64,000 nt of DNA from Rhododendron vialii. Lineage: Eukaryota; Streptophyta; Magnoliopsida; Ericales; Ericaceae. The position numbers and the translations under genes are program-made. The stretch spans positions 9,916,501 to 9,980,500 of the forward strand of contig NC_080560.1 in assembly GCF_030253575.1 (NCBI RefSeq), in the 5' to 3' direction. The notes under the pieces are model-generated. The model made no database searches and had not been told where the DNA came from. It saw nothing but the letters and a program-made list of their open reading frames with translations. Of this stretch, positions 49,949 to 50,710 are shown in pieces (the first letter of the stretch is position 1; the number at the start of each line of letters is the position of its first letter).

Positions 49949-50710
49949 GGGAATTACGAATATAATTCCCTTGTTCTATATTTTAGTTGCAAGGGGTACG
50001 AATAAACGCCCTCTTGAGTTTTACCGATTATAAATAAAATCACTTTTTTAGTATAATTGTTATGTTCTAATCTAGAATATTGGTATTTGTTTTAAATACG
50101 AACTACGAGATTCGTTTCCCTCATTCGTATTGGGGAGCAGGGTATACAGTTCAGTACGTGAAACTGAAAATCAAGTATGAAACACTTGTAAGATTTTCAG
50201 TACGTGAAACTGAAAATCAAGTATGAAACACTTGTAAGAGTTTCAAAACTTTAAGTACGTGATACTTAGGCGTTTTTGCGTGAATACATCCAATACACAA
50301 GTAGTTCTAAGTACGTAATACTTAGAAGTTGTGGTGTGAGTACGTGAAACTCAACGAATGCAAGTACGAGACTCTTGTAAACGTTTATTGGCATGGCTTG
50401 AAAACATAACGAGTATATGTTAGCCACATTTGTTCAAGTACGAGAAACTTAAAAACATTAAGTACATGACACTTAAACACAAGTATGAAACACTTGTGTG
50501 ACTTTCAAACAGTTAAGTACGTGACACTTAAACACAAGTATGAAACACTTGTGTGATTAAGTATGAGCACACTTATATGCCTTAAAAACCATTCAAGGTG
50601 GAACGCTTTTAAGTACGTGAAACTTAAAATTCAGAACAGGAAATCATGTGTGAAAGATTTGCTAAAAGTACGAAATACTTATGCAAACAAATGATGCTTA
50701 AACAGTACGA
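49949..50710. repeat. Array of short hairpins with related 7-nt loops and varying complementary stems
   Basis: At least a dozen hairpins share the plan stem-AGT / loop ACGTGAA-like (7 nt) / ACT-stem. Examples: TTCAGT/ACTGAA (50,150-50,168); TTTTCAGT/ACTGAAAA (50,194-50,216); TTCTAAGT/ACTTAGAA with loop ACGTAAT (50,305-50,327); TGAGT/ACTCA (50,337-50,353); TTAAGT/ACTTAA (50,458-50,476 and 50,513-50,531); ACACAAGT/ACTTGTGT with loop ATGAAAC (50,477-50,499 and 50,532-50,554); TTTTAAGT/ACTTAAAA (50,607-50,629). A looser one, GGGAATT/AATTCCC with loop ACGAATAT, is at 49,949-49,970. The array fills the spacer between the pol stop (49,903) and the antisense gene stop (50,906). Confidence 0.9.

What the first reader, a model, noticed from the sequence alone, without database searches (positions are those of the whole stretch)
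49949..50710. Array of covarying mini-hairpins between the converging pol and antisense genes of Tat-2
At least a dozen hairpins in about 0.6 kb have nearly constant 7-nt loops (ACGTGAA, ACGTGAC, ACGTAAT, ATGAAAC, ACGAGAA). Their stems differ (TTTTCAGT, TTCTAAGT, TGAGT, ACACAAGT, TTTTAAGT) yet each has an exactly complementary partner. Simple duplication of one word followed by mutation would break pairing rather than change both arms. It looks like selection or a templated process acting on structure. The array lies in the 3' UTR of both the sense and the antisense transcript, so it could act in RNA folding, dsRNA limitation, dimerisation or packaging, or protein binding. I know of no described element of this kind.
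Basis: partly seen in the sequence, partly recalled or inferred. Interest (0 to 1): 0.88.

Follow-up and report, generated by a model that had tools for sequence, protein, structure and literature searches.

The report
Dispersed loop-hairpins in a plant retrotransposon
A plant jumping gene of the Ty3/gypsy type carries a few dozen small RNA hairpins that show the same short loop on different stems, spread over its whole length and apparently kept by selection even inside its protein genes, much as some small RNA viruses mark their RNA for packaging.

Summary
The hairpins are real, and the finding is larger than reported. The 49.9-50.7 kb cluster is the densest part of a set that runs along the sense strand of Tat-2, a Tat/Retand-like Ty3-gypsy element. 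The hairpins share a 7-nt loop, AYGNRAN (mostly ACGNGAN), on stems that differ from site to site. Outside the cluster, 11 of 29 sense ACGNGA words open a 7-nt loop with at least 4 Watson-Crick pairs (expected 0.11); antisense 0 of 4. In 20 fetched copies the same holds; pooled, 308 of 710 sense, 0 of 54 antisense. Ten partial loci of other TRP28 families have none. Synonymous shuffling removes the coding hairpins (7 against 0.13); their third-codon diversity is halved (0.115 against 0.244). Against: covariation at homologous sites is weak (16 of 30 double changes paired, control 48 of 111), and G.U does not clearly exceed A.C. Best reading: RNA sites read by a protein, most likely Gag/nucleocapsid, for packaging, working like the dispersed packaging signals of STNV and MS2. 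The partner is inferred, not shown.

The parts
43392..44235 (+). 5' LTR of Tat-2 (TGTAGGGAG ... CCCCCTACA), followed by the PBS (TTGGCGCCGTC); holds sense-strand loop hairpins
   Evidence: LTR pair 98.6% identical over 811 aligned columns; ends and PBS read
44055..44069 (+). LTR hairpin tagt-ACGTGAT-acta; 16 of 17 homologous rows keep a stem of 4 or more
44086..44109 (+). LTR hairpin gcctttgcc-ACGAGA-ggcaaaggt, 6-nt loop, 9 pairs (one G.U)
44286..45701 (+). gag frame (PF03732)
44855..44871 (+). gag hairpin caggt-ACGAGAG-acctg (13 of 15 rows)
44932..44946 (+). gag hairpin ctgc-ACGAGAA-gcag (13 of 15 rows)
45341..45363 (+). gag hairpin aactttca-ACGAGAT-tgaaagtt (16 of 16 rows)
45776..45817 (+). 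codons of a C-X2-H-X4-H-X4-C zinc-knuckle-like motif (CSYHKDWGHMTEDC), the proposed loop-binding part
   Evidence: pattern match only; also read in 14 of 19 fetched 5' pieces
46385..46411 (+). hairpin tcttcctata-ACGCGAT-tatagggagg, over codons of SSYNAIIGR (18 of 20 rows)
46657..46673 (+). pol hairpin gatca-ATGAGAC-tgatc (20 of 20 rows)
46796..46810 (+). pol hairpin gcag-ATGTGAT-ctgt (11 of 16 rows have loop word and stem by the rule)
48115..48129 (+). pol hairpin tcct-ACGAGAA-agga (20 of 20 rows)
48642..48660 (+). pol hairpin tcttgg-ACGTGAA-ccaagg (20 of 20 rows)
48690..48704 (+). pol hairpin tctt-ACGAGAC-gaga (stem of 4 or more in 16 of the 18 rows with the loop word, of 19 rows); ttttACGAGATgaaa at the homologous place in L060 (C-G to U-A)
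49376..49390 (+). integrase hairpin cttg-ATGGAAT-caag (13 of 19 rows; highest third-codon diversity of the 11 coding hairpins)
49470..49486 (+). integrase hairpin ggtct-ACGGGAG-agacc over codons of RSTGET (19 of 19 rows)
50148..50721 (+). dense hairpin array between pol stop and antisense ORFs: 15 hairpins aligned in register; 13 meet AYGNRA plus stem 4 or more
50150..50168 (+). array hairpin ttcagt-ACGTGAA-actgaa
50192..50218 (+). array hairpin gattttcagt-ACGTGAA-actgaaaatc (10 bp)
50305..50327 (+). array hairpin ttctaagt-ACGTAAT-acttagaa
50337..50353 (+). array hairpin tgagt-ACGTGAA-actca
50477..50499 (+). array hairpin acacaagt-ATGAAAC-acttgtgt (again at 50532-50554)
50607..50629 (+). array hairpin ttttaagt-ACGTGAA-acttaaaa
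50906..53561 (-). antisense ORFs; the 52514-53119 frame has a weak Transposase_28 match (PF04195, 22.3 bits, under the 26.2 cut-off)
51589..51609 (+). hairpin on the sense strand across the antisense-ORF region, tccactg-ACGAGAC-cagtgga (14 of 18 rows)
51712..51726 (+). hairpin cccg-ACGTGAA-cggg
51732..51752 (+). hairpin ctcctct-AGTGAAT-agaggag (loop word off the motif); at the same place L011 forms acccctaATGAGATtaggggt, one base further along, so the base pairs are not the same ones
51889..51913 (+). hairpin ctccacttc-ACGAGAT-gaagtggag (11 of 18 rows)
53500..53516 (+). hairpin ggcat-ATGAAAC-gtgcc (13 of 15 rows)
53690..54499 (+). 3' LTR, as far as it aligns with the 5' LTR; hairpin tagtACGTGATacta at 54354-54368

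Best explanation
Tat-2 genomic RNA displays roughly 30-40 small hairpins with a common 7-nt loop (A, C or U, G, any, purine, A, any) on stems whose sequence varies from site to site, densest just after pol and scattered through LTR, gag, pol and the antisense-ORF region. Shown: the hairpins, the fixed loop size and loop letters, restriction to the sense strand, presence in the 20 copies fetched, and low diversity at synonymous sites. Inferred: they are read as single-stranded RNA by a protein that contacts the loop bases, most likely the element's own Gag/nucleocapsid part (which has a zinc-knuckle-like motif; HIV-1 knuckles grip the guanosines of G-N-G loops). Many weak sites plus one dense cluster would mark full-length RNA for selective packaging and help Gag assemble on it.
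For: Loop learned from the array reappears outside it: 11 of 29 ACGNGA in a 7-nt loop with >=4 WC pairs (expected 0.11), 0 of 4 antisense; with the word at the loop start, size 6 gives 1, size 14 gives 2, sizes 8-13 and 15 give 0. Found without prior motif: the best of all 3-mer/offset/size combinations in non-array Tat-2 is ACG at position 1 of 7-nt loops (8 against 0.11), and again in the divergent relative L060. 27 sites chosen by loop only: 61.6% cells paired against 37.6 (sd 3.0) shuffled, covariation 0.587 against 0.206; best slid register 0.370. 20 of 20 copies and L049, which was found by integrase rather than by the array word (9 of 18); pooled 308 of 710 sense, 0 of 54 antisense. Synonymous shuffle: 7 against mean 0.133, maximum 2 of 1000. 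Third-codon diversity 0.115 against 0.244, 0 of 5000. Predicted closing pair P>=0.5 in 21 of 41 motifs, against 2 of 34, 0 of 3 and 2 of 38 elsewhere and 30 of 300 random Tat-2 positions. Zinc-knuckle-like motif; HIV-1 NC binds loop guanosines of GGAG and GGUG (PMC7599994, passages). STNV coat protein prefers its loop motif, is indifferent to the stem, ~30 sites (PMC3593212, passages).
Against: No protein-binding or packaging data. Double changes at homologous pairs are not clearly compensatory (16 of 30 paired, control 48 of 111, p = 0.41). G.U interruptions do not clearly exceed A.C (30 against 26, and 58 against 50; 8 against 4 among majority pairs, p = 0.19), so RNA over DNA rests on strand polarity. 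Retroviral packaging sites sit mainly in the 5' leader, whereas here the dense cluster is near the 3' end; and in HIV-1 replacing the GGAG loop did not much affect packaging (PMC7599994, passage). Tat-1, which also has gag and a weak TRP28 match, and ten partial loci of other TRP28 families lack the hairpins, so Tat-type elements do not need them in general. The zinc knuckle is a pattern match, one motif, not a profile hit; HIV-1 has two. The array loop has A rather than G at position 5 in 73 of 194, which does not fit a strict G-N-G reader.
Confidence: 0.5

Rival explanations
1. The same hairpins are binding sites for a different RNA-binding protein: the antisense-encoded TRP28 protein, or a host factor for nuclear export, retention, decay or translation control of the sense RNA.
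For: TRP28 is a lineage hallmark predicted to bind DNA (PMC11963269, parts 1-3 of 5 read); the array lies beside its gene. All sequence evidence for loop hairpins fits equally.
Against: Ten other TRP28 loci and Tat-1 lack the hairpins. Spread through gag, pol and LTR suits coating of the RNA better than one regulatory site (inference). The TRP28 model was useless (mean pLDDT 37.6).
Confidence: 0.27
2. The loops hold genomic RNA together by loop-loop kissing or tertiary contacts (dimerisation or RNA compaction) without a protein.
For: Many array loops contain the self-complementary ACGU, and 182 of 194 AGT-N7-ACT loops read GNRA at positions 3-6, a sequence known for tertiary contacts (letters; the contacts are recalled).
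Against: ACGAGA, ATGAAA and ACGAAA loops (115 of 248) are not self-complementary. Dozens of sites exceed the need for a dimer link (inference). No partner sequence for the loops was searched for.
Confidence: 0.1
3. A templated copying process (strand switching of reverse transcriptase, or palindrome correction) makes perfect arms; no function.
For: Arms are often perfect and differ between sites; local duplication is visible in the array.
Against: Does not explain the fixed 7-nt size and fixed loop letters, the sense-only polarity, or the low third-codon diversity at hairpins in coding sequence.
Confidence: 0.04
4. Sites act in DNA: cruciforms or single-stranded cDNA hairpins bound by a DNA-binding protein such as TRP28 or integrase.
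For: No significant G.U excess over A.C in stems; TRP28 is predicted to bind DNA (PMC11963269).
Against: A site in double-stranded DNA should work in both orientations, yet polarity is 308 to 0. Only single-stranded plus-strand cDNA would remain.
Confidence: 0.07
5. Chance plus tandem duplication of AT-rich words.
For: Some array units are duplicates.
Against: Shuffles, control sequences in the same window, 20 of 20 copies.
Confidence: 0.02

Closest known systems
Dispersed packaging signals of satellite tobacco necrosis virus and bacteriophage MS2 (PS-mediated assembly; PMC3593212 and PMC6281560, passages read)
   Same: About 30 short hairpins along the genomic RNA (STNV), one shared loop motif, stem sequence indifferent.
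   Different: Here an LTR retrotransposon; 7-nt loop AYGNRAN instead of AXXA or xxYA; one very dense array; coat-protein binding untested.
Retroviral packaging signals bound by NC zinc knuckles (HIV-1 SL2/SL3; PMC7599994, passages read; MMTV purine loop, PMC8096270, abstract and section list seen)
   Same: Hairpin loops that expose guanosines or purines; G-N-G spacing as in GGAG and GGUG.
   Different: Few sites, in the 5' leader, there; dozens of sites along the element here, densest near the 3' end.
[quoted passage not shown]
   Same: Retand: same place between pol and 3' LTR; number of repeats varies between copies.
   Different: Described as variable tandem repeats of unknown function; the parts read mention no hairpin loop motif and no matching sites in gag, pol or LTR.
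BARE packaging and dimerisation signals (PMC3735527, passages)
   Same: Plant LTR element; packaging of its RNA into particles.
   Different: The passages seen mention conserved signals but not a dispersed hairpin set.

Membership tests
Tat/Retand lineage of plant Ty3/gypsy elements | gag, RT, RNase H, integrase domains in sense | tested here: met
   (no aspartic-protease profile hit was listed)
Tat/Retand lineage of plant Ty3/gypsy elements | antisense ORF with TRP28 (PF04195) between pol and 3' LTR | tested here: inconclusive
   right place and strand, E 0.00016, but 22.3 bits against a cut-off of 26.2
Tat/Retand lineage of plant Ty3/gypsy elements | long pol-3'LTR region (2.9-6.6 kb in PMC11963269) | tested here: met
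   49904-53689, 3.8 kb
Tat/Retand lineage of plant Ty3/gypsy elements | placement in an RT tree | not tested
Dispersed packaging signals (STNV/MS2 type) | many hairpins along the genome sharing a loop motif | tested here: met
Dispersed packaging signals (STNV/MS2 type) | stem sequence free | tested here: met
   between sites, 79 cells change on both sides and still pair, shuffled mean 41.8
Dispersed packaging signals (STNV/MS2 type) | loop bound by the element's own coat protein | not testable with these tools
   needs binding assay
Dispersed packaging signals (STNV/MS2 type) | needed for RNA-dependent assembly | not testable with these tools
   needs assembly assay
Retroviral Psi | main hairpins in the 5' leader next to the PBS | tested here: not met
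   densest cluster is at 50.1-50.7 kb; one GGGAA/TTCCC hairpin does follow the PBS in the window and in 9 of the 12 copies printed
Kissing-loop dimer site | self-complementary loop | tested here: not met
   ACGAGA, ATGAAA and ACGAAA loops, 115 of 248, are not self-complementary
GNRA tetraloop | GNRA letters closed by a standard pair | tested here: not met
   letters fit at positions 3-6 in 182 of 194, but the loop is 7 nt and position 7 is G in only 1 of 194, so C2-G7 closure is nearly absent in the array
Rfam families | match above gathering score | tested here: not met
   three weak matches, all far below cut-off

The most novel reading that the evidence does not exclude
A Ty3/gypsy retrotransposon has evolved a virus-like assembly code: dozens of loop-defined RNA hairpins written over its protein genes, with turnover of sites but upkeep of their number, recognised by its own Gag, so that only its full-length RNA is packed. 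The other TRP28 families sampled in the same genome lack it, so the code would be a family-specific identity tag that separates co-resident elements during packaging.
Probability: 0.4. Interest if true: 0.92.

Novelty: new variant of a known kind. Interest (0 to 1): 0.83.

Why it matters
How LTR retrotransposons, which make up much of plant genomes, pick their own RNA out of a cell full of transcripts is poorly known; [quoted passage not shown] Here sequence alone gives a precise, testable candidate: a 7-nt loop, dozens of sites, conserved across codons. It would carry the dispersed packaging-signal idea, argued for small RNA viruses, to a very large class of genomic elements, and give a simple string-plus-stem test to run on any annotated element. 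Even if the partner is not Gag, a family-wide set of structured RNA sites under constraint in coding sequence is unusual for a transposon (judgement).

Tried and rejected
Hairpins in general rather than loop-defined: non-array Tat-2 has an excess of perfect stems >=7 at loop sizes 5 and 7 (5 and 6; shuffled means 0.50 and 0.33), but with G.U allowed no loop size stands out; the loop motif is what separates signal from background. No relatives came from viral or prokaryote genome collections with single-protein queries. TRP28 structure: mean pLDDT 37.6, not used. Covariation at homologous sites: weak, told in full in the report. My first reading of 51740 in L011 as several compensating changes was wrong: the two hairpins sit one base apart and pair different columns. 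G.U against A.C as a test of RNA: not significant. A model built from array hairpins only (R1) finds the array and the LTR site 44051-44073/54350-54372, but not the coding hairpins; its other matches at E <= 10 are the antisense reading of 50305-50327 and two weak ones in Tat-1. L015 beyond 3.6 kb, which does not align with Tat-2, has only one weak 4-pair match. Rows dropped: two overlapping motif occurrences (48699, 51722) from the 29; L046, which has no Tat-2 homology, from the pool (8 motifs by the wider pattern, no hairpin). One search used 9 coding hairpins and was replaced with all 11 and the window row left out.

Full report
What was checked. Tat-2 has LTRs at 43392 and 53690 (98.6% identical over the aligned 811 columns), gag, RT, RNase H and integrase on the + strand, and antisense frames with a weak Transposase_28 match. 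The 5' LTR reads TGTAGGGAG...CCCCCTACA and a PBS follows. The 3' LTR alignment stops at 54499, so its end is missing or displaced.

The array. Shuffles do not give it (10 hairpins with stem >=6, mean 1.17, maximum 5 of 500). In 21 pieces (20 copies and the window) I listed hairpins in the 1.2 kb after pol: 9-16 per copy except the rearranged L017 with 4. These 20 copies were chosen because they hold the array word CAAGTATGAAACACTTG, so some array is there by selection. Fixing only the AGT/ACT stem and a total stem of 5 or more, and leaving the loop free, 194 of 270 loops of 3-12 nt are 7 nt long, and 182 of these 194 read GNRA at positions 3-6; position 1 is A in 193, position 2 C or T in 194, position 5 G in 120 and A in 73, position 7 A, C or T, G once. 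These counts include copies of the same hairpin in related elements.

It is not only an array. The loop word ACGNGA occurs 29 times on the sense strand of Tat-2 outside the array (5' LTR to the start of the 3' LTR) and 4 times on the other strand. In 11 of the 29 it opens a 7-nt loop with at least 4 Watson-Crick pairs; 0.11 were expected. With the word at the loop start, loop size 6 gives 1, size 14 gives 2, sizes 8-13 and 15 give 0. Controls in the same window: Tat-1 0 of 10 and 0 of 10, the nested element 1 of 8 and 0 of 8, all else 0 of 19 and 1 of 16 (+ and - strand). A search over all 3-mers, offsets and loop sizes 4-10, told nothing of the array, ranks ACG at the start of 7-nt loops first in non-array Tat-2 (8 against 0.11, p 4.5e-13); the best in any control segment is 4.3e-6. 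Allowing loops of 6-10 nt and G.U pairs, 24 of 41 ACGNGA in Tat-2 (array and both LTRs included) reach stem score 10, against 10% of random Tat-2 positions, 3 of 37 elsewhere on + and 5 of 38 on -. Local folding gives a closing pair with P >= 0.5 for 21 of 41, against 2 of 34, 0 of 3 and 2 of 38 in the controls and 30 of 300 random positions.

Different stems, one loop. I aligned 27 of the 29 non-array sites on the loop alone (two overlapping ones left out), with no structure criterion. 61.6% of cells pair against 37.6% (sd 3.0) after shuffling; 79 cells change on both sides and still pair, against 41.8; the covariation score is 0.587, shuffled 0.206, best slid register 0.370. The number of pairs with any double change (8) and of pair types (33) is no higher than in shuffles. 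These are comparisons between sites of one element.

Constraint in coding sequence. Shuffling synonymous codons within the four frames leaves 0.133 such hairpins with stem >=4 on average (maximum 2 in 1000), where 7 are seen. In alignments of 16, 20 and 20 rows for gag and the two pol segments, third-codon diversity in all 11 coding hairpins of the window, with the window row left out, is 0.115 against 0.244 for random blocks of the same sizes, 0 of 5000 as low. One of the 11, at 49380, is not conserved (0.340). Insertion is an unlikely origin for these: they lie in gap-poor alignments of coding sequence, for example over the codons of SSYNAIIGR at 46395 and of RSTGET at 49475.

The family. 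The exact 17-mer has 1012 places in the genome, its reversed control 0. In 20 of 20 fetched copies the sense strand has 8-29 ACGNGA with 3-18 in hairpins of 4 or more WC pairs; the antisense strand has 0-3 and none in hairpins. L049, brought in by integrase and not by the array word, has 9 of 18, antisense none. Pooled over 39 pieces (227,346 nt; the two pieces of a copy overlap by about 100 bases and include some flank), 308 of 710 against 0 of 54. At non-array places, 26 of 95 loci that bear the wider loop word in 5 or more rows have at least 4 of the first 6 majority pairs Watson-Crick. Sites turn over: 43490 is a hairpin in 1 of 18 rows, 51937 in 7 of 18; near 51740 L011 forms acccctaATGAGATtaggggt one base away from where the window forms ctcctctAGTGAATagaggag. 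More distant relatives: L060 (integrase 93.8%, TRP28 54% identical) has 4 of 10 sense words in such hairpins and its unsupervised scan again puts ACG in 7-nt loops first; L059 (TRP28 58%) has 1 of 5 by the strict count and 7 hairpins by a wider one. Ten other loci found by the TRP28 profile (L050-L058 and L061) have 0 on both strands; three of them (L050, L054, L058) gave no tblastn match to either TRP28 query and rest on the Pfam hit alone, and L061 has a Tat-type integrase 54% identical to that of Tat-2. L050-L057 are 3-kb pieces and L058 and L061 4 kb, so most of their elements was not seen.

Results against. Within homologous sites (21 loci), 30 distinct double changes were seen, 16 paired; a slid control gave 48 of 111, p = 0.41. 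Counting only variants shared by two or more rows: 5 paired, 4 broken. Paired cells exceed permutation modestly (1766 of 1967; mean 1740.5, maximum 1757). G.U and A.C interruptions are 30 and 26 in one count, 58 and 50 in the wider one, and 8 and 4 among majority pairs. That RNA rather than DNA is meant therefore rests on polarity and on position within a sense transcript that was not itself observed.

How it may work. One loop on any stem, many sites, one strand, constraint across genes: this is what is expected of a protein that reads the loop on full-length sense RNA. The element codes a C-X2-H-X4-H-X4-C motif in the gag-pol region, read in the window and in 14 of 19 5' pieces; only this one motif was matched in it. 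In HIV-1, two zinc knuckles hold two loop guanosines one base apart in GGAG and GGUG (PMC7599994, passages); ACGNGA also offers two guanosines one base apart. The same review notes that replacing the HIV-1 GGAG loop did not much affect packaging. STNV coat protein prefers its loop word, ignores the stem, and has about 30 sites (PMC3593212, passages). I take Gag-driven packaging as most likely (0.5), with another RNA-binding partner next (0.27). Certainty that a constrained, loop-defined hairpin set exists is much higher, about 0.93 by my judgement.

What is in print. Ten full-text searches in an open-licence library listed no title or abstract start that describes dispersed hairpins of this kind in an LTR retrotransposon; most of these listings were cut to the best 8-20 papers. 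Most subscription papers are not held, so this does not show that none exists. The Retand survey (PMC11963269, parts 1-3 of 5 read) reports tandem repeats and antisense ORFs in this region and no hairpins in those parts; the listing counts 0 occurrences of 'hairpin' in it.

Noticed in passing
6154-30567 with 9930-20952: A second Tat-like element (Tat-1, LTRs 97.3% identical, weak TRP28 match) holds a nested gypsy element whose LTRs are 99.7% identical.
   Followed up: partly
25090-25270: Six copies of the palindromic core TATCGATA (mostly in GTATCGATAC) cluster in the pol/antisense spacer of Tat-1, the place where Tat-2 has its hairpin array (counted by eye).
   Followed up: no
L060: Integrase 93.8% but TRP28 only 54% identical to Tat-2: the 3' part of the element looks swapped or fast-evolving relative to pol.
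   Followed up: no
L027 (C1:31116966-31117180): The array 17-mer repeats at 33-base steps, a tandem expansion of one hairpin unit; L015 has a long array with near-regular hairpins.
   Followed up: partly
44251-44269: Just after the PBS a GGGAA/TTCCC hairpin holds ACGAA in its loop, the classical place of a retroviral packaging signal; of 12 copies printed, 9 keep the stem and 8 also the ACGAA; L035, L041 and L045 lack the stem.
   Followed up: partly
genome G000: Of the 125 best integrase matches many lie in open frames of about 1890-1900 codons, so the family has probably been active recently.
   Followed up: no
56710-57200 and 62280-62610: Tandem repeats with about 40-base and 28-base steps, the latter carrying an AAACCCTAATC-like word.
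   Followed up: no
2196-4721, - strand: Long frame with DUF4371 and hAT dimerisation domains, a hAT-type transposase-like gene.
   Followed up: no
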